Of a stretch of DNA of 35,253 nucleotides, positions 21,073 through 35,253 are shown one piece after another; the first letter of the stretch is position 1, and every line of letters starts with the position of its first letter. The stretch comes from Magnetococcales bacterium (GTDB lineage Bacteria; Pseudomonadota; Magnetococcia; Magnetococcales; Magnetaquicoccaceae): the NCBI GenBank assembly GCA_015233035.1, contig JADFYM010000010.1, positions 1 to 35,253 on the forward strand. Reading direction: 5' to 3'. The notes beneath the pieces are model-generated. The model worked only from the letters and a program-made list of their open reading frames with translations, did no database searches and was not told where the DNA came from. Position numbers and translations under genes: made by a program.

Positions 21073-21122
21073 AAAAAAAAAGGGTGGGGGGGTCTGGGGG
21101 GGCGGTTCACCGCCCGCCCCAG
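21073..21122 (-). terminator. Module B terminator overlapping the end of the TPR gene
   Basis: The stem (21094-21105 with 21110-21122, one bulge) has a loop TTCA on the plus strand that holds the stop codon of the TPR gene (21107-21109). On the minus strand a 12-nt C-rich spacer and nine T (21073-21081) follow. The opposite strand carries four closely spaced runs of three or more G, a potential G-quadruplex. Confidence 0.75.
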
Positions 21123-22564
21123 AAGGGGGCATCACTATCCTTTCCCCAGAAGGGGGCATCGCTGTCTTTTCCCCAGAAGGGGGTTTCTTGTGCTTGGCGT
21201 ATGGCAGCGATTTTGTCTTTTGTGACGGTGATGGCAGGCAAGTCGCCGAGTTTCTCGAAGACTGGGAGTTGTTCTTCATGGATACGCAGGGCCAGGTCGA
21301 GTTCTCCCCGTGCTTTGTGGACATCGGCGATTTTGCTCATGATGGTTGTGCGAGAGTGGAGGTCGCCGATTTTTTCGAAAACCGGAAGTTGTTCCTTGTA
21401 GGCACGCAGAGCCTCGTCGAATTCTCCCCGCGATTTAAGTACATCTACGATTCTGGTTATGGTAACGGCGCGGAGGCGGATGTCGCCGATTTTTTCGAAG
21501 ATCGGGATTAATTCCCTGTAGACGCGCAGAGCCTCGTCAAGTTGTCCACGCGCTTGGAGCACATGTGCGATTCCGCCCATAGCGATGGCTCGTTCGCGGG
21601 TGTCGCCGATTTTTTCGAAGATCGGAATCTGTTCCTCGTAGATGCGCAGAGCCTCGTCGAGTTGTCCCTGCCCTTGGAGTACATCTGCGATTCTGCTCAT
21701 GGTGATGGCGCAGAAGCGGAGATCCCCGAGTTTTTCGAAAACTGTAAACACCTCATTCTTTAATAAATTTAAGGCTATCTCCGATTCTCCTCGAAGCAAC
21801 AAGGATTCCACCATGAGTATTCCGACCTCGGATGCGGTGCGTGGGTCATTCTGATCTTCAAACAGGGTGCGCGCCTTGCGCAAATCCGCCAAAGCCTTGT
21901 CCCACTCTCCCAATTGTCTGTGCAATTGTCCCCGTTCTTTCCATAGGCTGGCCACGGCCCATGAGGGTTCAGGATAGGTGGCCAGGTGGTTGTCAATGGT
22001 TGAAATGCGTTGCACGGTATCGTTATGCCGGAGGTTAATCCGCTCGACATCAAGGAGGGGAGGCAGAATCGCCTCTTGTTGCGGTCTGCTGGGTCGGGTA
22101 AAGGTTAACACCGCACTGCGCCAGGACCACAGGTCCGGGGCCTCCAGGGCGAGGGTCCGCAACTCGGAAGGGCTGAGCCAGATGAGTATCGGTCTGGCGG
22201 CTTTTTCGGCCATAATGTCCCGCATGCCGTTGAGCAGCCAACAAAAACGCATCCCCTGTTCCAGCCGCAACCAGGTTCCCAGTTCCAAAATATGCACGGG
22301 CGCGTGATCCGGTGGCAGGGCAGCCAATGCTTCCAATACCGGTCCCGAACTGACCCAGTCGAGAGGCATGACCAGTTGCTTACCGGGATAGCCCATCTCC
22401 GCCAAGCGTTGGATGATGGCATCCCGATAGCGGCGTTCCCCGTATTCCAGGAATACCAATATAAACCGAGGATTGTTCCCCAGTAGGCGATCCAATTGCA
22501 GGAGCGCGCCCGAGTGTTCGCTGGACAGCGATGGAAGTGGGTCCGAATCAGCCGAGGGGGGCAT
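21107..22564 (-). CDS. TPR protein, probable sensor partner of the adjacent ATPase
   Basis: A 485-residue protein. Residues 30-155 form an alpha/beta domain containing NGMRDIMAEKAARPILIW and then APDLWSWRSAVLTF; this pattern resembles a module I associate with bacterial STAND-type proteins, where it links the NTPase to the TPRs. Residues about 200-460 are tetratricopeptide repeats. Residues 281-440 are four units of exactly 40 residues, each ending in FEKIGD or a close variant. The last 25 residues are three copies of a PFWGKDSDA-like unit encoded by 27-bp DNA repeats derived from the downstream terminator. The start ATG 22564 overlaps the ATPase gene by 17 nt, so the two are probably translated together. 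I cannot name a function beyond a likely ligand-sensing or scaffold role. Confidence 0.85.
   Translation of the reverse strand: MPPSADSDPLPSLSSEHSGALLQLDRLLGNNPRFILVFLEYGERRYRDAIIQRLAEMGYPGKQLVMPLDWVSSGPVLEALAALPPDHAPVHILELGTWLRLEQGMRFCWLLNGMRDIMAEKAARPILIWLSPSELRTLALEAPDLWSWRSAVLTFTRPSRPQQEAILPPLLDVERINLRHNDTVQRISTIDNHLATYPEPSWAVASLWKERGQLHRQLGEWDKALADLRKARTLFEDQNDPRTASEVGILMVESLLLRGESEIALNLLKNEVFTVFEKLGDLRFCAITMSRIADVLQGQGQLDEALRIYEEQIPIFEKIGDTRERAIAMGGIAHVLQARGQLDEALRVYRELIPIFEKIGDIRLRAVTITRIVDVLKSRGEFDEALRAYKEQLPVFEKIGDLHSRTTIMSKIADVHKARGELDLALRIHEEQLPVFEKLGDLPAITVTKDKIAAIRQAQETPFWGKDSDAPFWGKDSDAPFWGGR
21117..21183 (-). repeat. 27-bp tandem repeats in the TPR gene end
   Basis: Units begin at 21117, 21144 and 21171 with CCCCAGAAGGGGG on the plus strand. 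The first two are 27 nt long and differ at few positions; the third diverges after its first 13 nt. The repeated core equals the outer arm of the module B hairpin that ends the gene, which suggests the arm was duplicated and became coding. Confidence 0.8.
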
Positions 22565-23864
22565 GGCGTGTGTAGCCTGGCAAAGTCTGTACGATGGGAT
22601 GGGAACGCCACCAGTGGTCGTTGTATTCCAGCAATGCCAGTACCTTGAATAATTTGGTCAGTTCTGGTCTGTCTGGTTGCACATCATCGCCCGTGTCGAT
22701 CATCCGCATCAACTCGTAATCTCTGGCTTCGAGCAGTCGGCGAAAATCCGACGCCATGCTGGCCACAGCCTTGTCAGCGGCGGTGCGATCCAGGCGATTG
22801 TGTCGGCTTTTTTGCCAAGTCAGACTGAGTAGACGTACCAGGTCACGGGGATGTCCACCGCAGTGGTCGATCAGATGATCCACGGTCTCCATGCCGTCGA
22901 ACCATTGGAGCGGAACGCGCCGCAGGACCATTTCCCGCAGAGTTGCTCGGGCGTCGTTGTCGCTGAAAGATCCATCCCGATTGTACAGCTTTATCATGGG
23001 GAGACGGCATACAGCACTGTACTGTTGTTGTAGAGCATTGGTCTCAAACAGGATGTGAATCGGTGCGCCATAGAGAAAATTGGCACGAATTTGTTGCAAT
23101 TGATGGACATCCTCAATGAAGAAACGATGGGTATCTTTCCCGTTGAGCTTGTCCGTTCCGTCAATGATAAACAACAGGCCTCGTCCCAAATGACTCTCCT
23201 GGAGCAGACGATTGGCTTCGTCAATCAGGGCGTTGAAGGCTTCCGCGAATTCTGCAAAGCTGTTACGTACCACTTCGCGCAACTCATCCTTGTAGGAGGC
23301 GTTATATCGAAAGGCATTGGTTACCTTGACCAGAAAATCGCTGATAAAGGGCAGAGAGAGACCAGCCTTGATTTCTGTTGCCAACTCCGTGGACAACGTC
23401 TTGTCCGTCATGCGTGTGATCACATGTTGTGTGAACCAGACGTGCAGACGATCCAAATATACTGCATCCACTATGAGTTGTTTTTCCTGCAAGGCAGAAC
23501 AGAGCCGTTGGGCACAAGTGAGTAACAAGTCCACATACTGGAGATTTTGCGGGTCGAGTTCGTTGCGGGCATCCAACAAGATGACATGGTAGCCATCCGG
23601 GTTGTGTAGAGTGCTCTGAAGCCGACGCATTTCTGTACTCTTGCCGCAACCAATATGACCTGTGAAAAGCAGGTACCGGCGATTCGGCACTTTCACCACC
23701 CGCGACGTGTTCGGATCTACTCCCAACTCTTGGTAGAGATCATGAAAGCTGAACTCACCCCGGGCATGGGCTGTATCCACATATAACGGATCATCCGGCT
23801 CCAGTGCCCGATTGGGCTCGAGATTGTCTCCGAGTTTAAAAAACTCCAATAATTCATCGCTCAT
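22548..23864 (-). CDS. P-loop ATPase (AAA/STAND-like)
   Basis: A 438-residue protein of the AAA/STAND-like ATPase group. The Walker A motif is GHIGCGKST (residues 69-77), preceded by RRYLLFT. Walker B is LLFIIDGTDKL (about 230-240), ending in a single aspartate. A late block CGGHPRDLVRLLSLTW is typical of the winged-helix/sensor region of such ATPases. There is no membrane segment and no recognisable effector domain. The start ATG 23864 has GGAGG eight nt upstream and follows the nitroreductase stop by 22 nt. The 17-nt overlap with the TPR gene suggests the pair works as one split STAND-like signalling unit. What it senses or triggers cannot be seen. Confidence 0.85.
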   Translation of the reverse strand: MSDELLEFFKLGDNLEPNRALEPDDPLYVDTAHARGEFSFHDLYQELGVDPNTSRVVKVPNRRYLLFTGHIGCGKSTEMRRLQSTLHNPDGYHVILLDARNELDPQNLQYVDLLLTCAQRLCSALQEKQLIVDAVYLDRLHVWFTQHVITRMTDKTLSTELATEIKAGLSLPFISDFLVKVTNAFRYNASYKDELREVVRNSFAEFAEAFNALIDEANRLLQESHLGRGLLFIIDGTDKLNGKDTHRFFIEDVHQLQQIRANFLYGAPIHILFETNALQQQYSAVCRLPMIKLYNRDGSFSDNDARATLREMVLRRVPLQWFDGMETVDHLIDHCGGHPRDLVRLLSLTWQKSRHNRLDRTAADKAVASMASDFRRLLEARDYELMRMIDTGDDVQPDRPELTKLFKVLALLEYNDHWWRSHPIVQTLPGYTRHAPLG

Positions 23865-24735: not shown

Positions 24736-25116
24736 TCACAACGACCGCCGCCGTCGCAAGGTGACACCCACCCAACGGGCAAACCGCACCGCACCCGGTT
24801 TTTTGACCGACACCTTGACCCGACAAACTCGCGGATAAGCCAGGCAAAGCCCGGCGATACGCTCGGCCAGAGTCTCGACGAGCAAAAAACAGGACTGTTC
24901 CGCCAAAGCAATGATGGCCTGGCTCACAGCCGCATAATCGATGGTCTCTTCCAACCGATCACTCTGGCCCGCCGAGGCGAGATCTGCTTGCAGGACGACG
25001 TTGACTCTGACCTCCTGCACCGTATGGCGTTCCCACTCCAGCACGCCGATGATACAGCGCAGACGCAGATCGTGAATTCGGATCCGATCCAGCGGGGCCG
25101 CGTCAGGAGTGGGCAA
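24736..25116 (-). CDS. folB: Dihydroneopterin aldolase
   Basis: Cleaves 7,8-dihydroneopterin to 6-hydroxymethyl-dihydropterin and glycolaldehyde in folate synthesis. It has 126 residues. The pterin-binding glutamate in IIGVLEWER (E27), the tyrosine in IDYAAVSQAI (Y61), the LVETLAERIA block and the catalytic lysine in VSVKKPGAVRFA (K106) are present. It starts with TTG at 25116: GGAGG lies exactly six nt upstream and no ATG or GTG is suitably placed. It overlaps nrnC by 14 nt. The related epimerase FolX is a less likely alternative. The last residues are Arg-rich. Confidence 0.9.
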   Translation of the reverse strand: MPTPDAAPLDRIRIHDLRLRCIIGVLEWERHTVQEVRVNVVLQADLASAGQSDRLEETIDYAAVSQAIIALAEQSCFLLVETLAERIAGLCLAYPRVCRVKVSVKKPGAVRFARWVGVTLRRRRSL

Positions 25117-25747
25117 AGATATCCTCCGCCTCCCATCCCGCCAGATCCAGGGTGACCCGGGTGGGCAAAAAGGCCATGCACTCCCGTGCCAGTTCCAGCC
25201 GACCCTCGCGTTGCAGCATCACCTCCAACGCCTCTTTCAGGGTAACCAGATGGATCACGTCGGATTGTACATATTGCAATTGTTTGGCGGACAGGGTGAC
25301 TGCGCCCCAATCGGAAGATTGCTGTTGCTTGTCCATTTCCACGCCCCGCACCTCGCGGACCAGATCCTTGAGGCCGTGAAAACCGCTGTAGGTGCGAATC
25401 AGACGGGAGGCAATCTTGGTGCAAAAGACCGGTTGCACCTGAATGCCGAGCCAATGGCGCAACGTGGCCAGATCATAGCGGGCAAAGTGAAAAATTTTTT
25501 CGACCGCAGACGATTCTAGTACCGCTTGCAGACGGGGGGCCGGTCGCCGTTGGGCGGCCTGTTCCTGTGAGATCTGCACGATGGCCACCGCTCCGTTTTC
25601 GTTGCACATTTGTACCACGCACAGTCGGTCGCGCAAGACATTCAACCCCATGGTTTCGGTATCGACCGAGAGATAACGACTGCTCAGGTACCGTTGCTGA
25701 TATTCCGCATCCAGATCGCCCTGGAAGACTTTTGGCTGGGTTTGCAT
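25103..25747 (-). CDS. nrnC: NanoRNase C (RNase D-like 3'-5' exonuclease)
   Basis: A DEDDy exonuclease that, in alphaproteobacteria, degrades the shortest RNA products (diribonucleotides). It has 214 residues and lacks the HRDC domains of true RNase D. The catalytic residues are in SVDTETMGL (D29, E31), HFARYDLATL (D92) and YVQSDVIHL (Y159, D163). The blocks VFCTKIASRLIRTYSG, KQQQSSDWG and the end GWEAEDIFAHS match NrnC closely. The ATG at 25747 is preferred; upstream codons are open but unlike the family. It is followed by the overlapping folB and then a module B terminator. It diverges from the gene at 25902. Confidence 0.92.
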   Translation of the reverse strand: MQTQPKVFQGDLDAEYQQRYLSSRYLSVDTETMGLNVLRDRLCVVQMCNENGAVAIVQISQEQAAQRRPAPRLQAVLESSAVEKIFHFARYDLATLRHWLGIQVQPVFCTKIASRLIRTYSGFHGLKDLVREVRGVEMDKQQQSSDWGAVTLSAKQLQYVQSDVIHLVTLKEALEVMLQREGRLELARECMAFLPTRVTLDLAGWEAEDIFAHS

Positions 25748-25901
25748 AGTGGTCACGGCTCCACGCCTCGCAAAAAAGTGTAAAAGAACAGTCACACGGT
25801 CGGACAGACGCAAAAAGAGGTGTAGCCCTCGCGCTGGAACTGTGGCATAATTCCATATTCCCGTTATAAAGCGTTCTGGATGGAATGGAAAGGATTTGGC
25901 A

Positions 25902-27194
25902 ATGGCATCGAAAGATAATTATACCGTCGAGCAACTGGACCGCATTCGCACCACGCTGGGAACCGCGTTGGGGGACAAGTCGGCCCAGGCCCTGGAGGCT
26001 CTGGAGACCCGTTTTTCACCCGCCCCGGATATTTCCGAGGAAGATGAAAAACTGATGAAATTGCGCGAAAAAATGGATAATCCAACGATCGATGTGGACT
26101 CTGTGATTGCGACGGGTCGTCTGGATGCCATGATTGGCGTGTTGGAAAAGGCCAAAAACGAACCGGACAAGCAGAAACGCTTGGTGACCTCCATCCTGGG
26201 TCACAAGGATGCCAAGCCGCCCCGTCTGGTGGAGGCCTTGAGCAAGGTCAGCAACCAGAAAGAGTTGGTCGAAGATCTGGTGGCGGGTATTGTGGCCCAG
26301 CGCGGGGTCAATCCGCTGATCGATGCCTTGCGGCACGCCACGATCAGCAAGACGGCCTATGAGGCACTGGCCAATGGTATTGCCGAGCAGGGTACGGTCA
26401 ACCACATGATTCGCACGATTGCCGCCGCGCCAGCGGGCCAACCCGATGCCGAGTTGCTGTGGGCGATGGAGATCATGCGCAAGGGGACGGTGGAGCAGAT
26501 GCTGGAGGCGATGAACCTGCTGAATGACAGTTCGCCCGGTGTGGTTGCCTTGGCCTCGGGGGTGGCCAATCGCAAGGATGTGGGGGTCGAGCAGATGGTG
26601 CGGGGGCTCTCCTTCTGTAAAAACAATGCCAAGGCTTCGGCCATTCTGGCCCTGGAGCTGACCCGGATTGCGGATATCAATGCGGTCGTGGTCATTCTGG
26701 AAAAATATATCAGCGATGCGACGGATGCGGGCGAAATTCTGGTCGTCAAGCTGGTGCATCGGGCCAAGTTTGCCCGCAATCGGGAACCTTTGCTGCTCAA
26801 GGCGACCCGTTTCATGCGGGGCAACTCCATGGCGGGCAAAATTTTGGCCATGGGTATCTATGAGATGGGCGACCCGGAAAAAATTGTGCAGGCTTATGGT
26901 CGCATGGCCGGTCATCCTGCCGCGCAGAAGGTCATGGCCTGGGGGGCATTCAGAAAACTGGGGGCCTTGAAGGCGATGTCCTTGTTGGGCAAGGAATATT
27001 TCCGCATGGGGTCGCAGCAGGCGGAGGTGGAGGCGACGCTCAAGGAGGCCCGGCAGCGGTATGAATGGGTGTTGCAGGAGGTGTTGGGCGAAGATCCCAC
27101 CCTCAAGCCGGATCCCGAACCGCCCAAAACAGAACCGCCCAAAACAGAAGCACCCAAAAAAGAGGCGGCCAAAAAAGAGGCACCGAAAAAATAG
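25902..27194 (+). CDS. Uncharacterised helical-repeat protein with Pro/Lys-rich tail
   Basis: I do not recognise a family. The 430-residue product has no signal peptide and no clear membrane helix. From about residue 70 to 370 it looks all-helical, with units of roughly 35-40 residues of the form (GI)A-x2-G-x-V-x2-MI-x-AL (for example GVNPLIDAL, GTVNHMIRTI, GTVEQMLEAM, GVEQMVRGL), reminiscent of HEAT- or ARM-type solenoids. The C-terminus is a low-complexity tail of PPKTE, PKKEA and AKKEA units, positively charged, as in surface- or nucleic-acid-tethering tails. The ATG at 25902 has GGAAAGGA seven nt upstream. A CATAAT or TATAAA box (25846-25871) may be its -10 element, without a good -35. 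Alone in its transcription unit. Confidence 0.8.
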   Translation: MASKDNYTVEQLDRIRTTLGTALGDKSAQALEALETRFSPAPDISEEDEKLMKLREKMDNPTIDVDSVIATGRLDAMIGVLEKAKNEPDKQKRLVTSILGHKDAKPPRLVEALSKVSNQKELVEDLVAGIVAQRGVNPLIDALRHATISKTAYEALANGIAEQGTVNHMIRTIAAAPAGQPDAELLWAMEIMRKGTVEQMLEAMNLLNDSSPGVVALASGVANRKDVGVEQMVRGLSFCKNNAKASAILALELTRIADINAVVVILEKYISDATDAGEILVVKLVHRAKFARNREPLLLKATRFMRGNSMAGKILAMGIYEMGDPEKIVQAYGRMAGHPAAQKVMAWGAFRKLGALKAMSLLGKEYFRMGSQQAEVEATLKEARQRYEWVLQEVLGEDPTLKPDPEPPKTEPPKTEAPKKEAAKKEAPKK

Positions 27195-27600: not shown

Positions 27601-27607
27601 AATCATT

Positions 27608-30133
27608 TCAGGACAGGATTACTGCCCCGCGACCACTTGACCCCTTCCAGGTTGGCCCCCTCCAGATTGGCCTTGTCCAGATTGGCCCCGCGCAAATCGG
27701 CCTCCTCTCCTGCAATCGGGCCTGCCCCAGATTGGCCCAAAACAGGTCGGCCCCGCGCAAATCGGTGGCCTGCAAATCGGCCCCATACAGATCACACAAG
27801 CGCAACACCGCCCCCGACAAATCCAGATGACTCAACCAGTTCAACGCCCCCGTGCCTGGCTCGGTCGCACTCCGCTGCCGCCGCAGATGATGCAGCCAGG
27901 TGCCAAAGGCGGTCGCTTCCGTCACCCATTTGGGAGAGCGACGACCCGTGTGGCGGGCACAACCGTTCAAGGCGGCCAGCAAAGCCAGTTCGGCATTCCG
28001 CCCTTCGTCGTCCATCGCCCGGCTGCTGGGCCACTCCCGATGGCTCCTGGGCAGACCGTTTTGCAGGAGGTGGTCCAATAGTGTGGCCAACCGTTTTTGC
28101 CATTCCCATACCGTGCGGGGGGTATATGAAGCCAGTTCGCGCCGCACAAAGGCGAACAGGGTGTCGTCCACCGGGCTGGGACCGCACACCAAGACCCACT
28201 GGCGCAAGGCGCGGGCCTCGTTCCACCCCTTGTCAGGCTGGGTCCGCAACAGTTTGAGTTGCTGGCTCACCTGCTGAATCAGGCGGACAATGCGCCGGGC
28301 GGTCAAAAATTGGGCAAAGCCCGGCTGGAGGAAGGAATAACTCTCTGCGCCATCCGGCCGGGGGGCGGACGGGCGACAACCGAAGGCGGTCAAAATGCGC
28401 AACATGCCCTCGCTGGCCTCGGGTTTGCGGCGGTCCAGGCGGCCCTTTTGCCGGGCGGTCTGCCACACGGCCTCCCATGCGCCCAGCGATGCCGTCCACC
28501 CCCGCCCCTGCCAGGCCGTCACCGCCATCTCTTCCAGCAACAGGATCAAGGCCTCTTCGGTCCACCCCCTGGTGGCCGGATTGCGTCCGCCCTCATAGGT
28601 GCGGTGCACGATTTCTGTCAACAGGTACCGATAGATCCGGTTCAACCCCTCTTCCTCGATGCTGTCGAGCTGACCGGACGCCAGCCCCTGGGCGAGCAGA
28701 TGGTTGGTCAGGGGATGGGCGGTGATCTCGGCCAGGAAAGGGTTGTCGATAGGACACGGTGCAGGCAAGGCGGTCGCCAAACGCCCGGTGGCCTGGGCGT
28801 AACCGGTCCACCACGCGGGCCGCTGGTCGGTTGGGCATGGCAGTTCGGGATGGTCCCGCCAGGGCGGTTCCGTGGCCGGGCAGTAGGAGAGCAGATGGAG
28901 CCATTGGCCGGGCCGGCGCAACAGGTCGCTGTTGGCGGTACACAACGGGTCGCGGGCGGTGATCAAAACCTGCAATCGGGTCTCCCGTTGGTTGAAGCGC
29001 GCCGCCGTGTGCCAGACATCTTCCAGCCATTGCCGGGCGGCGGTGACCATCTGGTCGCTCTGCATCGCCCACTCTTCCAGCCCGTCACAGATGAGCAAAA
29101 GCTGTTCCCGGTCGCCCATTTCCTCCAATGGGCTGTAACTGTGGCAATACGGATCGGCAGCGACCAGTGCCTTGACGGCCAAGACCAGGTCGAGTTGCAC
29201 GGGCAACAGATGCAGGGGGATGAACAGCACGGTCCGTTTGCCTTCGTTGGCGATGGCGGCGGCCAACATTTTGGCCAAGGTGGTCTTGCCGCTGCCCGGT
29301 CCGCCACAGACCAGGCGCACGGCATCGTCGGGATTGGCCGCGTGCAACCACTGCCACAGGGTGTCATGCAGATCGACCACTGGCGGGGCGATGGTCTGTT
29401 CGGCGCATTCGGCATAGGGTGCAGCGGGTTCCGTGTACCAGCCGCGCAGGGGGATATAGAGGGTGCGCAGACTGATGTTGGCCGTCAACAGGGGTTCGTC
29501 CACCTGTTTTTGCAGCCAGGCCCGGTAGTGGTTCCAGCCTTGTTCGCGCGCGGCGGCCTGGGTGAAAGGGGTGGCCACCTCCTGTTGCAGACAGCGATAC
29601 GCTTCGGGATGGTTGCGCCATTGATTGTTGAGGGCAAAGACAAAATAGCTGGGGAGACGTTGGGCAATGGCCTGGGCCTGGGCCGGGTCGGTGCCGCTGG
29701 CCGTCAGCCAGTGCCGCAGGGGACGGTCCATCTGTTCCAGCAGGGGGCAGCGTTCGGGGTGGAGAAAAAACGAGTGGTCCAGACAGAGGGGTTGTTCTTC
29801 CAGGGTCTGCTCCAGGTTGAGGGAGGCCACAAATTGTTCCGGGTCGGCAATGGTCTGTTGCAAATGGGCGGCACTCTCTTTGGCCAGTTGAAAGATGGCC
29901 TCGGTCAGGGCGCGGTGGATCAACAGCCAGGCCTGTGCGCCGCAATCGTTGGGTGCCAACTCGATGCTGGCGAGGGCCTCCAGGGCGTTGCTGGCGGCCT
30001 CCTGCCAGTTGTGGGTGGCCAGATGGAGCGTCCCGACGGCCAGATTCAGGAACAGTTGCCGAAAGTCGGTCCGAATCGCCCGATTCCACAGGGCAATGGG
30101 TTTGGTGGTGCAGAAGCCGTGGGTCGTCGTCAT
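27608..30133 (-). CDS. NACHT/STAND-like NTPase with pentapeptide repeats, C-terminus frameshifted
   Basis: An 841-residue predicted signal-transducing NTPase. The N-terminal 230 residues are helical without a known domain; then comes YRAWLQKQVDEPLL and LRTLYIPLRGWYTEP before the P-loop. Walker A is CGGPGSGKTTLAKM (about residue 276) and Walker B LLLICDGLEEWA (about 345), the NACHT-like layout. A helical region follows, then pentapeptide repeats (LDLSGAVLRLCDLYGADLQ onward). At 27702-27711 the coding strand has AGGAG twice in tandem; removing one copy restores further A(D/N)LxG repeats ending at 27603. As read, the last 36 or so residues are Trp/Arg/Gly/Pro-rich nonsense. The ATG at 30133 has AGGAGG nine nt upstream; open sequence further up is not gene-like. 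The role may be phage defence, by analogy only. Confidence 0.85.
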   Translation of the reverse strand: MTTTHGFCTTKPIALWNRAIRTDFRQLFLNLAVGTLHLATHNWQEAASNALEALASIELAPNDCGAQAWLLIHRALTEAIFQLAKESAAHLQQTIADPEQFVASLNLEQTLEEQPLCLDHSFFLHPERCPLLEQMDRPLRHWLTASGTDPAQAQAIAQRLPSYFVFALNNQWRNHPEAYRCLQQEVATPFTQAAAREQGWNHYRAWLQKQVDEPLLTANISLRTLYIPLRGWYTEPAAPYAECAEQTIAPPVVDLHDTLWQWLHAANPDDAVRLVCGGPGSGKTTLAKMLAAAIANEGKRTVLFIPLHLLPVQLDLVLAVKALVAADPYCHSYSPLEEMGDREQLLLICDGLEEWAMQSDQMVTAARQWLEDVWHTAARFNQRETRLQVLITARDPLCTANSDLLRRPGQWLHLLSYCPATEPPWRDHPELPCPTDQRPAWWTGYAQATGRLATALPAPCPIDNPFLAEITAHPLTNHLLAQGLASGQLDSIEEEGLNRIYRYLLTEIVHRTYEGGRNPATRGWTEEALILLLEEMAVTAWQGRGWTASLGAWEAVWQTARQKGRLDRRKPEASEGMLRILTAFGCRPSAPRPDGAESYSFLQPGFAQFLTARRIVRLIQQVSQQLKLLRTQPDKGWNEARALRQWVLVCGPSPVDDTLFAFVRRELASYTPRTVWEWQKRLATLLDHLLQNGLPRSHREWPSSRAMDDEGRNAELALLAALNGCARHTGRRSPKWVTEATAFGTWLHHLRRQRSATEPGTGALNWLSHLDLSGAVLRLCDLYGADLQATDLRGADLFWANLGQARLQERRPICAGPIWTRPIWRGPTWKGSSGRGAVILS
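27702..27711 (-). other. 5-bp tandem duplication causing a frameshift
   Basis: The coding strand reads CAGGAGAGGAGGCC. With a single AGGAG the reading continues as AxLxx pentapeptides (ARLQE, ADLRG, ANLDK, ANLEG, ANLEG) to a stop at 27603-27605. Slipped-strand duplication, an assembly error, or a ribosomal -1 shift at the AGG AGG codons are the options; the first or second is most likely. Confidence 0.75.
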
Positions 30134-30465
30134 GCCGGGTTGCCTCCTGGGATGGCGTGGTCGGAGAGTGGCCTGGCGGCCAGTGGGGCTGGGACATGAC
30201 CTGTTCATGTCTCTTGTTGCGCAGGGGATGGGCAGGGTCGTCCCCTGCCATCCGTTGTACCGTGCAGGATACAGGGGGAGGCATGAGAAGGGGTTCGGTC
30301 CATGGGAGACGGCCGCGATTCCAGAAGCAAGCGTCCAGAAATTTCCAATGCGCGTGCCGTGATCACGATGGCATTTCTGTTCCGTGCACGCTACAATACC
30401 CGTAACGGTTGCGGTTTTCATCCTGCACCCGCTGCTCTCCTGCCAGCCCACTCGACGGTGCCGCC
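30134..30465. other. Divergent intergenic region between STAND NTPase and Rpn nuclease genes
   Basis: These 332 nt must hold the promoters of both divergent genes. On the plus strand TACAAT (30392-30397) is a possible -10 element for the nuclease gene, without a convincing -35. Mutually exclusive hairpins can form: GCAGGGGA 30221-30228 with 30241-30248, or GGCAGGG 30231-30237 with 30243-30249. The open frames crossing the region have no recognisable content. Confidence 0.45.
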
Positions 30466-31389
30466 ATGAAATTTATCGACCCGCGTATTGACTTTGCCTT
30501 CAAGAAAATTTTTGGCAGTGAACAGGCCAAGGAAGTGCTGATCAGTTTTCTGGAGAGCCTGCTGCAACTGGAAGGCGACCGGCGCATTGCCGAATTGACC
30601 ATTCTCGATCCTTTCCTGGCCCCCCGGATTCGCGAGATGAAAAATTCCATCCTGGATGTCAAATGCCTCGATCAGCGGGGAATCTCTTATATTGTCGAGA
30701 TGCAGGTCCAGAAGGTGGCCGCCTTTTTGAAGCGGATCCAGTACAACGCCGCCAAGGCCTATGTGCAGCAGATTGGCAAAGGGGAAGAATATCCCAAGCT
30801 CAACCAGGTCATTGCCATTACCATCACCGATTTTTTGTTGTTTGATGGCTTTACGCACTGCATTTCCCGGCATGAATCACGGGAAACGCGGACGGGGCAG
30901 ACTTATTTACAGGAAATCGTTCATCTTTTTGTCGAATTGCCCAAATTTACACAACCCTTGGCCGCGTTGTGCACCAACCTGGACAAGTGGATCTATTTTA
31001 TCAAATATGCCGGATCGTTGCAGGAGGTGCCCGAACCACTGCGCGCCGTGCCGTTTTCCCATGCCTTTGAGATGGCCATGCTCGCCAACATGACGGATGA
31101 AGAACTGGAACTGTATGACAAGGCTGGTATTGCCATCGCCGATGCACGGGGTGCGGTTGAACTGGCATGGCAGGAGGGACGGCAGGAGGGACGGCAGGAG
31201 GGACGGCAGGAGGGACGGCAGGAGGGGCAGGCCGATTTTTTCCTGCTGTTGTTGAAAAGTCGGTTTGTCTCCTTGCCGGAGTGGGTGATCCAGCAGGTGC
31301 GCGACGCCGATCCTCCCACTCTGGAACGGTGGGGGGGGCGCGTGTGGCATACCCAGACCTTGGAAGGGGTGTTTGTCGACCAGGCGTGA
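30466..31389 (+). CDS. Rpn/PD-(D/E)XK nuclease family transposase-like protein
   Basis: A 307-residue member of the recombination-promoting nuclease (Rpn, PDDEXK_2) family, proteins first annotated as transposases and shown in E. coli to be DNA endonucleases, some of them phage-defence toxins. The N-terminus FIDPRIDFAFKKIFGSEQ is diagnostic. The catalytic core is ILDVKC (D64) and YIVEMQ (E78, Q80). A hinge (residues 236-255) is a run of QEGR units from a 12-bp VNTR, as in other Rpn proteins, followed by a short C-terminal helical domain. The ATG at 30466 is chosen as the family start, although its ribosome binding site is weak. It diverges from the STAND NTPase gene. Confidence 0.92.
   Translation: MKFIDPRIDFAFKKIFGSEQAKEVLISFLESLLQLEGDRRIAELTILDPFLAPRIREMKNSILDVKCLDQRGISYIVEMQVQKVAAFLKRIQYNAAKAYVQQIGKGEEYPKLNQVIAITITDFLLFDGFTHCISRHESRETRTGQTYLQEIVHLFVELPKFTQPLAALCTNLDKWIYFIKYAGSLQEVPEPLRAVPFSHAFEMAMLANMTDEELELYDKAGIAIADARGAVELAWQEGRQEGRQEGRQEGRQEGQADFFLLLLKSRFVSLPEWVIQQVRDADPPTLERWGGRVWHTQTLEGVFVDQA
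31171..31230 (+). repeat. 12-bp in-frame VNTR in the Rpn gene
   Basis: Four perfect copies of CAGGAGGGACGG (31171-31218) and a partial fifth (31219-31230), coding for Gln-Glu-Gly-Arg. Length change by whole units keeps the reading frame. Each unit also contains AGGAGG, a perfect Shine-Dalgarno sequence. Confidence 0.9.
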
Positions 31390-32614: not shown

Positions 32615-35253
32615 TCATCTGTCTTTTCGCCAGTATACGCTTTGGACATCAATGGGCTGTAATTCTTCATGAATCCCACGCTGGGCGCGAAAATCATGGA
32701 TGGCTCTTTTGCAGGGAGGGCACGAGCCATAGTCGTCCACAATAATAAATCCGCCTGGTGACACCTTGTCATAGAGAGGCACCAGGGCATCCATAGTGGA
32801 CTCATACAAGTCGCCATCCAGGCGAAGGACGGCCAACTGCTCAATGGGGGCTATGGGCAGGGTATCCTTGAACCAGCCTTTTAAAAATTTGACGTTGTCG
32901 TCGAGCAGATCATAGCGCGTAAACAGTTCTTTGACTTCCTCCAGAGATACAGCAAGAACAGGAAGCTTGTGCCGGCTGATGTCGAAGCCAGCATCTTCTG
33001 GCAAAGTGGGAACCGGCACACCTTCGAACGAGTCAGCAGCCCAGACGATGCGGTCTGTGACGCCATGTGCCATGAGAATGCCACGCATAAAGATGCAGGA
33101 ACCCCCTCGCCAAATACCCGTTTCAATAAAGTCTCCCTTGATGTTGTCTCTGAGCACAGTTTCAACACAATACTGTATGTTTTCCAGGCGTTTTTTCCCG
33201 ACCATTGTATGAGAAAGCTCTGTAAAATTACGCAAATAATGTGCAGGAATCGGCAATCCTTTTGTGGTATGGTTCATCAAGACAATCGTGTTACCGGTCT
33301 CCTTGCAAGAGAGCAGAGCTTCAAGAATGTGCGGCTGAGTTCGACTGATATTGGGAAATTGCCAATACTCAATCGGCAATTTATTCAATATGCAGTGAAA
33401 AGTGTGCAGTATTCTCAATTCATTTTCTATGTATAACTCGTTCAGCAAGGATTTTTTCAGAAGATTAATATGTTTTTTTGCAAGATCCCCGGTTTCTGCA
33501 GGATGCGATGGACGGGGATTTTCTTGTGTGTGCAAGGAGATTATGTTGGTTGTGACTTCTACCGACAGCGGTTTTATGACTTCTGGTGGGCGGGTTGAGC
33601 GTGTTCGGTCCGCATGACACCAAATCCGCCACATCTCTTGCCAGGCTTTGGTGAGGTTGTTGGCGAACCGTGGGGCATCAAAGAGAGGTGATCGCAGGAC
33701 CTGTTGCCGCAACCCGGCCCGCAAGGTGGCCAGACCGGGCAGGTCATTGGCAAAATCGACGGCTTTGCGTACATAATCGTCCACATCGGTGGCAATCCAA
33801 TCGGGCAGGCCCGCATGGGTCAGTATCGTCTCACCCTGATGGGAGAGAAAGCGGTTGCCTTTTTTGGTCAGGACGGGCACGCCCATCCATAATCCTTCGA
33901 CGCTGGTTGTTCCGCCCGGAAAGGGAAACGGATCCAACGCCAGGTCCACCCGGTTGTAGGCTGCCAGATACTGTTCCCTTGTCTGCGGACCCTCCAGAAT
34001 TAACCTCTCCGAGGCAATTTGAGCTTGCTGGAATTGCTCCATGATCTTGAATCGCATTTTTGCATCGGCAAATGCCACATTCTTGAGAAATAATCGACTG
34101 TCTGGCACGGACAGCAAAATTCTTGCCCAACAGGCGACCACGGCAGCAGTCACTTTGGAAATCTTGTTGAAACAACCAAACGTGACAAAACCATTGGTGC
34201 AGGCAGGCAATGGGGTGACTGTGAGGGGAAAATCCGGTGGAGTGAAACATAGATAACAGTCCGGCAGATGCCAAGGTTTTTCAACAAAATGCCAACGGTC
34301 ACTGCCGGGCAGGTTGATGGGATCGCCCAGGATATAGTCGATGGCGGCCACGCCGGTGGTCGCAAAGTAACCCAGCCAGGTGACTTGGACGGGGGCAGGT
34401 TTCCAGGCAAACATACCCAGTCGGTTGTGTCCAGTGTGACCGGCAAGATCCATCAGAATGTCTATGGCATCCGATTGAATGAATTGGGCCAATTCGGCAT
34501 CGGACAAACTGTCAACCGTGCGCCAATGGGGAATGCTGGTCTTGAATTTTTGGGTGAGATTATCTTCCTGGCAGAATGTGTCATAGGCGAACAGTTCAAT
34601 ATCCGCTGGATTCAAGGCTTCGACCACCCCTTCCAGAAAATAGCCAACGGGATGATTGCGCAAATCCCCGGAAACCAGTCCCACGCGCAGGCGGCGGTTG
34701 CTGTCAGCAGGGGTCACTGGATGGCTGAATGGCTTTGCCTGGGATGCCACCAGTTCTCCATACTTTCTTGCATCTGCTAGGCTTTCCTCCAGATTCTTGT
34801 CTCCTTGATAATTATGAGTAAATAACAGTCCACTGTGGGCGTGGGCGTAATCGGGGGCGATTGTCAGTGCTTGGTGATAACTCCGTTCAGCCTCGTCCAG
34901 GCGGCCAACATCCTTCAGGAGATTGCCCAGATTGGAGTGGGCCTCGGCATAGTCCGGCTTGACGTGCAGAGCCTGCCGGTAAGACGCCTCGGCCTCCTCG
35001 AAGCGTTTCAACTCGTGCAGGAGATTGCCCAGATTGTAGTGGGCCTCGGCAAAGTCCGGCTCGACGCGCAGAGCCTGCCGGTAAGACGCCTCGGCCTCCT
35101 CGAAGCGTTTCAACTCGTGCAGGAGATTGCCCAGATTGTAGTGGGCCTCGGCAAAGTCCGGCTCGACGCGCAGGGCATGTCGGTAAGACACCTCAGCTTC
35201 CTCGAATCGTTTCAGATCTTGCAGGAGATTGCCCAGATTGTAGTGGGCTTCGG
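32615..35253 (-). CDS. TPR / GT41 (SPINDLY-OGT-like) glycosyltransferase fused to TylF-like methyltransferase, partial
   Basis: The frame is open through the right edge, so the N-terminus is missing; about 878 residues are visible. First come 34-residue TPRs (AEAHYNLGNLL repeats). Next is a GT41 catalytic part: RVGLVSGDLRNHPVGYF, LMDLAGHTGHNRLGMFA, PAPVQVTWLGYFATTG and DPFPFPGGTTSVEGLWMGVP, as in O-GlcNAc transferase-type enzymes that glycosylate proteins from a UDP-sugar. A linker of about 120 residues follows, then a TylF/macrocin O-methyltransferase-like domain of about 210 residues: KGDFIETGIWRGGSCIF for S-adenosylmethionine, then LRLDGDLYESTMDAL and GGFIIVDDYGSC. The linker and methyltransferase DNA is poorer in GC than the TPR-GT part. 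The fusion suggests addition and methylation of a sugar on one target, which is inference. Confidence 0.9.
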   Translation of the reverse strand, partial: EAHYNLGNLLQDLKRFEEAEVSYRHALRVEPDFAEAHYNLGNLLHELKRFEEAEASYRQALRVEPDFAEAHYNLGNLLHELKRFEEAEASYRQALHVKPDYAEAHSNLGNLLKDVGRLDEAERSYHQALTIAPDYAHAHSGLLFTHNYQGDKNLEESLADARKYGELVASQAKPFSHPVTPADSNRRLRVGLVSGDLRNHPVGYFLEGVVEALNPADIELFAYDTFCQEDNLTQKFKTSIPHWRTVDSLSDAELAQFIQSDAIDILMDLAGHTGHNRLGMFAWKPAPVQVTWLGYFATTGVAAIDYILGDPINLPGSDRWHFVEKPWHLPDCYLCFTPPDFPLTVTPLPACTNGFVTFGCFNKISKVTAAVVACWARILLSVPDSRLFLKNVAFADAKMRFKIMEQFQQAQIASERLILEGPQTREQYLAAYNRVDLALDPFPFPGGTTSVEGLWMGVPVLTKKGNRFLSHQGETILTHAGLPDWIATDVDDYVRKAVDFANDLPGLATLRAGLRQQVLRSPLFDAPRFANNLTKAWQEMWRIWCHADRTRSTRPPEVIKPLSVEVTTNIISLHTQENPRPSHPAETGDLAKKHINLLKKSLLNELYIENELRILHTFHCILNKLPIEYWQFPNISRTQPHILEALLSCKETGNTIVLMNHTTKGLPIPAHYLRNFTELSHTMVGKKRLENIQYCVETVLRDNIKGDFIETGIWRGGSCIFMRGILMAHGVTDRIVWAADSFEGVPVPTLPEDAGFDISRHKLPVLAVSLEEVKELFTRYDLLDDNVKFLKGWFKDTLPIAPIEQLAVLRLDGDLYESTMDALVPLYDKVSPGGFIIVDDYGSCPPCKRAIHDFRAQRGIHEELQPIDVQSVYWRKDR
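34966..35169 (-). repeat. Two identical 102-bp tandem repeats in the TPR region
   Basis: 34966-35067 and 35068-35169 are identical over all 102 nt, each coding one 34-residue TPR. The next unit towards the edge (from 35170) and the one before it (up to 34965) are clearly diverged. This points to a very recent duplication or conversion; units may vary in number between strains. Confidence 0.9.

What the first reader, a model, noticed from the sequence alone, without database searches (positions are those of the whole stretch)
27603..30133. STAND-like NTPase with its pentapeptide-repeat end switched by a 5-bp duplication
Tandem AGGAG at 27702-27711 throws the frame; deleting one copy restores five further pentapeptide-type units and a stop at 27603, only 5 nt from the present stop. 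Both ends fit just before the convergent terminator. A slippage-prone site in the sensor end of a defence-like NTPase could be a phase-variation switch. The AGG AGG codons and strong Shine-Dalgarno-like sequence might alternatively support -1 frameshifting, though no slippery heptamer is seen.
Basis: partly seen in the sequence, partly recalled or inferred. Interest (0 to 1): 0.65.

Follow-up and report, generated by a model that had tools for sequence, protein, structure and literature searches.

The report
Frameshifted tail of a bacterial NACHT protein
A bacterial immune-type NTPase (NACHT with a pentapeptide-repeat end) from an uncultured Magnetococcales bacterium carries a small tandem duplication, absent from its relatives, that swaps its last repeats for junk; this looks like an ordinary recent frameshift mutation rather than a built-in genetic switch.

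Summary
The gene at 27608-30133 (-) encodes an NNH3-NACHT-pentapeptide protein. A perfect AGGAG pair at 27702-27711 moves the frame, and the pentapeptide coding sequence continues in the -1 frame to a stop at 27603-27605. A six-frame Pfam search finds the repeat family above its cut-off in both frames, on either side of the site. Both same-genus orthologues (60% and 49% identical) lack the 5 bp and stay in the repeat frame to their stops. Homology to most cyanobacterial relatives also stops at the site (residue 807-808). An AlphaFold model loses confidence there.

The switch interpretation is not supported. Two-copy 5-mers occur at chance level in the window, the repeat is absent from orthologues, and two copies fall below published cut-offs for phase variation. 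Frameshifting would have to be -1, with no slippery heptamer and no stable RNA fold. Best reading: a recent, private frameshift allele (or, less likely, an assembly error) that cuts the sensor end short in an otherwise conserved gene. Three other homologues are also broken, so inactivation recurs in this family. In a Microcystis pair the same end varies by whole in-frame units and diverges about tenfold faster than the core.

The parts
27608..30133 (-). ORF of 841 aa as it stands: NNH3 (aa 28-220), NACHT (aa 274-372), helical linker, truncated pentapeptide repeats (about aa 767-808), out-of-frame tail (about aa 810-841)
29471..30052 (-). NNH3 domain (NACHT N-terminal helical domain 3)
   Evidence: 131 bits, cut-off 27
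29279..29305 (-). Walker A GGPGSGKTT (aa 277-285) of the NACHT NTPase; Walker B-like LLICDGLEE lies at aa 346-354
   Evidence: invariant in the alignment: G277 G280 G282 K283 D350 G351
27743..27835 (-). pentapeptide repeats in the annotated frame
   Evidence: 33.6 bits
27702..27711 (-). tandem AGGAG AGGAG, the 5-bp duplication; absent from both same-genus orthologues
27639..27704 (-). pentapeptide repeats continuing in the -1 frame
   Evidence: (30.0 bits, open frame of 62 aa)
27608..27700 (-). present out-of-frame tail PICAGPIWTRPIWRGPTWKGSSGRGAVILS and stop TGA 27610-27608
   Evidence: low model confidence from residue 811
27603..27605 (-). TGA stop of the -1 (pentapeptide) frame

Best explanation
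The gene encodes a bacterial NLR-like protein: an N-terminal helical NNH3 module, a NACHT NTPase, a helical linker and a C-terminal pentapeptide beta-helix, probably used as sensor or scaffold. In this genome a slippage-type tandem duplication of 5 bp in the repeat array shifted the frame, so the last four to five repeat units and the native C-terminus are replaced by about 30 unrelated residues. The event is recent and private to this lineage; its simplest consequence is a weakened or dead sensor end, i.e. an ordinary loss-of-function or hypomorphic allele. Shown: the duplication, the frame change, its absence in orthologues, the conserved core. Inferred: sensor role, loss of function, slippage as the cause, and that the base-calls are right.
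For: Domains NNH3 1.9e-36, NACHT 2.1e-08 and Pentapeptide 4.6e-07. The window-specific 5 nt is absent in both same-genus orthologues. Most relatives' protein homology ends at residue 807-808. The pentapeptide family matches both frames. Against L002, the six differences in the first 45 nt after the site fall 1, 0, 5 by codon position of the -1 frame, so that frame was the selected one until recently. The core shows dN/dS about 0.3 and no excess of substitutions on the window branch (62 versus 64), so decay has not spread. Model confidence falls from about 80 to 29-52 past residue 810, while in orthologue L002 regular strands continue past the site at pLDDT about 53-68. Three other homologues are also broken: L019 (TAA), L020 (TAA) and L024/L004 (truncated).
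Against: There are no reads, so an assembly or base-call error is not excluded. The tail still carries a repetitive five-residue pattern from the 15-bp units and could be tolerated; nothing here shows loss of activity. The intact core is also what a reversible switch would show.
Confidence: 0.74

Rival explanations
1. Assembly or consensus error in this draft genome: the true sequence has a single AGGAG.
For: The genome is a 434-contig draft and the change is private to it; the array consists of similar 15-bp units that can confuse assembly.
Against: The assembly holds one allele only; a clean 5-bp tandem duplication is not a typical Illumina or homopolymer error (own knowledge); the 25 bases around the site occur once in the window even with three mismatches allowed.
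Confidence: 0.14
2. Phase variation: slippage between one and two AGGAG copies reversibly switches the sensor end on and off.
For: The duplication alone toggles two complete tails with stops 5 nt apart. Two- versus three-copy pentanucleotides are reported to change the reading of an H. influenzae gene (PMC2651432).
Against: Two-copy 5-mers occur at chance level (36 versus 33.3 +/- 4.9), and H. influenzae Rd has 1676 of them with a cut-off of three (PMC2651432); PhasomeIt used five or more (PMC6321876). The repeat is absent from both orthologues. No second allele was found in the own genome or in viral contigs.
Confidence: 0.05
3. Programmed -1 ribosomal frameshifting (or re-initiation at the TTG 5 nt after AGGAGG, which is in the pentapeptide frame) makes the full repeat end from the present sequence.
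For: AGGAGAGGAGG is strongly Shine-Dalgarno-like; AGG AGG are codons that can provoke shifting in E. coli when over-expressed (PMC5009743); a -1 shift restores the repeats.
Against: No X XXY YYZ heptamer by inspection. The 101-nt RNA around and after the site folds worse than all 200 shuffles (z +2.06). A +1 shift leads to a third frame with its own stop. Orthologues read straight through without the motif.
Confidence: 0.03
4. The new tail is functional and kept: a neofunctionalised C-terminus.
For: Core under purifying selection; the tail keeps a five-residue periodicity.
Against: No orthologue shares it; low model confidence; the differences from L002 still fit the old frame.
Confidence: 0.04

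Closest known systems
bNACHT / bacterial NLR-related antiphage proteins (PMC12169576)
   Same: Central NACHT NTPase, N-terminal module and C-terminal putative sensor; the fold search ranks NLRC4 and NAIP5 first among solved structures
   Different: N-terminus is NNH3, with no PD-(D/E)XK or other recognised effector; C-terminus is a pentapeptide helix rather than SNaCT or NCH1; no defence shown; PADLOC gives only weak P-loop matches
Simple-sequence-repeat phase-variable genes, e.g. the GACGA repeat in H. influenzae hsdM (PMC2651432)
   Same: Pentanucleotide tandem repeat inside an ORF, each copy shifting the frame
   Different: Only two copies, at chance level, not conserved, no length polymorphism seen
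DGR-diversified NACHT sensors (PMC10907252)
   Same: Variation concentrated in the C-terminal sensor of a NACHT protein
   Different: Here a single frameshift; no diversity-generating retroelement was looked for

Membership tests
NACHT-clade STAND NTPase | NACHT domain over curated cut-off with Walker A and Walker B | tested here: met
   PF05729 34.6 bits versus 26.7; GGPGSGKTT and LLICDGLEE; invariant G277, G280, G282, K283, D350
NACHT-clade STAND NTPase | Tripartite layout: N-terminal module, NTPase, C-terminal repeat sensor | tested here: met
   NNH3, NACHT, helical linker and pentapeptide; the sensor end is truncated in this allele
bNACHT antiphage protein | Protects against phage | not testable with these tools
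   No assay possible
Simple-sequence-repeat phase-variable gene | Repeat number above the threshold used for hypermutability (at least 3 to 5 pentanucleotide units) | tested here: not met
   Two units; thresholds from PMC2651432 and PMC6321876
Simple-sequence-repeat phase-variable gene | Repeat enriched over chance or conserved at the locus in relatives | tested here: not met
   36 versus 33.3 +/- 4.9; absent in L002 and L003
Simple-sequence-repeat phase-variable gene | Length variants within the population | not testable with these tools
   No reads; one genome per species; one copy in the own genome
Programmed -1 frameshift gene | Slippery heptamer X XXY YYZ | tested here: not met
   Inspection of 27690-27725
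Programmed -1 frameshift gene | Stimulatory downstream RNA structure | tested here: not met
   z +2.06; all 200 shuffles fold at least as well
Programmed -1 frameshift gene | Conserved frame junction in orthologues | tested here: not met
   Orthologues read through in one frame

The most novel reading that the evidence does not exclude
A bacterial NLR-like protein whose sensor end is toggled by gain and loss of a pentanucleotide copy, so that a population holds a mixture of armed and disarmed immune receptors.
Probability: 0.04. Interest if true: 0.6.

Novelty: new member of a known kind. Interest (0 to 1): 0.22.

Why it matters
As a single frameshift it matters little. It adds an NNH3-NACHT-pentapeptide family in Magnetococcales, Cyanobacteria and Acidobacteriota with several broken members, consistent with immune-type NTPases that are repeatedly lost. 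If the sensor really toggled, it would be a phase-variable bacterial NLR, of which I found no report in the literature searched here.

Tried and rejected
Looked for a second allele in the own genome and in viral contigs: none. A genome-contig scan with the single protein found no relative; an alignment query found ten loci. Tested whether the neighbouring STAND/TPR pair (22548-23864 and 21107-22564) is also frame-split: relatives keep the NTPase as a separate ORF of similar length, so probably not. Attempted a Microcystis genus-wide survey of the repeat end; the tool does not accept a locus as centre. PADLOC gave only weak P-loop matches. The terminator scan found no clear terminator at the 3' end. 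A profile search of solved structures by sequence listed only pentapeptide-type matches at the repeat end, no NACHT protein.

Full report
Check of the observation. The minus-strand ORF 27608-30133 starts at ATG 30133 behind an AGGAGG and reads 841 codons. AGGAG stands twice in tandem at 27702-27711. Three frames were read after AGG AGG: the present frame gives PICAGPIWTRPIWRGPTWKGSSGRGAVILS*, the -1 frame gives ADLRGANLDKANLEGANLEGVKWSRGSNPVLK*, and the +1 frame ends at its own stop. The stops of the first two lie at 27608-27610 and 27603-27605. A six-frame search of the genome with Pfam PF00805 independently finds two matches over the cut-off, one on each side of the site and in different frames (27743-27835, 33.6 bits; 27639-27704, 30.0 bits).

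What the protein is. Pfam finds NNH3 (1.9e-36), NACHT (2.1e-08) and pentapeptide repeats (4.6e-07). Walker A GGPGSGKTT and Walker B-like LLICDGLEE are intact, with key residues invariant in the alignment. An AlphaFold model (mean pLDDT 74.8, nine sequences) resembles NLRC4 and NAIP5 most among solved structures; the alignments run over most of the length, but the global TM-scores are low (0.2-0.3), so this supports an NLR-like layout only. The two nearest relatives with names are Magnetococcales MAGs.

Comparison with relatives. Only 3 of the 7 genomes of the genus carry the gene, and G022, of another family of the order, carries a truncated one. Orthologues G005 (L002, 60%) and G003 (L003, 49%) lack the 5 nt exactly at this site and keep the pentapeptide frame to the stop. 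In blastp against cyanobacterial and acidobacterial relatives, most alignments stop at residue 807-808, the point of the duplication; the two close alignments that run further (L022, L026) have long repeat ends of their own, and this extra stretch was not examined further. Over the first 45 nt after the site, window and L002 differ at 1, 0 and 5 places by codon position of the -1 frame, the pattern of a recently selected reading frame; L003 is less clear (5, 1, 7). The core has dN/dS near 0.3 and equal change on both branches (62 versus 64). The duplication is therefore private and probably recent, and the rest of the gene shows no sign of decay.

Effect. Model confidence is about 80 through the repeats and drops to 29-52 after residue 810; in L002 the regular strands continue past the equivalent point, at moderate confidence. 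The four to five lost units amount to roughly one turn of a pentapeptide helix (four units per turn; own knowledge). Loss of the native cap could destabilise the helix; that is inference.

Is it a switch? A two-copy 5-mer is unremarkable: 36 in the window against 33.3 +/- 4.9 in sequences simulated from its dinucleotide content, four of them in this gene. In H. influenzae Rd there are 1676 two-copy pentanucleotides and the authors required three (PMC2651432); PhasomeIt required five (PMC6321876). In H. influenzae two- versus three-copy alleles can differ in expression, so two copies do not exclude variation but give no positive sign of it. The repeat is not conserved, and no second allele was found.

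Is it recoded? The needed shift is -1. No slippery heptamer is present, the RNA around and after the site folds worse than all shuffles, and the AGG_AGG effect described for E. coli depends on over-expression (PMC5009743); that this effect goes in the +1 direction is own knowledge, and +1 would not restore the repeats. A TTG in the pentapeptide frame lies 5 nt after AGGAGG, so re-initiation of a small peptide is conceivable but has no support.

Wider pattern. Of about eleven close family members read here, L019 (TAA at codon 224 of its frame), L020 (TAA) and L024/L004 (truncated, with an out-of-frame remnant downstream) are also broken. Between two Microcystis aeruginosa genomes (L019, L021) the core is 98.4% identical but the repeat end is 84.7% identical, with two gaps of 45 nt, i.e. 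three pentapeptide units each. So natural variation of this sensor end, where seen, proceeds by whole in-frame units, unlike the out-of-frame event in the window.

Verdict. Observation confirmed; an ordinary frameshift allele is most likely; switch and recoding are unsupported but not excluded without reads.

Noticed in passing
window 21107-23864 (-): A second STAND/NACHT-like NTPase gene (22548-23864, weak NACHT match below the cut-off) overlaps by 17 nt a TPR-repeat gene (21107-22564): a two-gene arrangement in which NTPase and repeat part are separate proteins. Relatives G001 and G002 keep the NTPase as a separate ORF at 72-73% identity.
   Followed up: partly
L019 and L021 (Microcystis aeruginosa), repeat end: NACHT-pentapeptide homologues are 98.4% identical in the core but 84.7% in the repeat end, with two 45-nt in-frame gaps: fast, unit-wise diversification of the sensor end. 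L019 also has a premature TAA.
   Followed up: partly
L020 4007-4009; L024 about 6554 (same gene as L004): Further broken members of the family: an in-frame TAA, and a truncated gene with a remnant in another frame downstream.
   Followed up: partly
window 25103-27194: A 3'-5' exonuclease gene and a 432-aa gene of unknown family form a conserved divergent pair in the genus. What lies downstream of the 432-aa gene varies: the NACHT gene in the window and in G005, other genes in G001 and G002.
   Followed up: partly
window 30409-31389 (+): PD-(D/E)XK family transposase (PF12784) upstream of the NACHT gene, with a tandem QEGR repeat near its C-terminus.
   Followed up: no
window 32615-35191 (-): One ORF joins TPR repeats, a glycosyltransferase 41 stretch and a TylF methyltransferase domain.
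   Followed up: no
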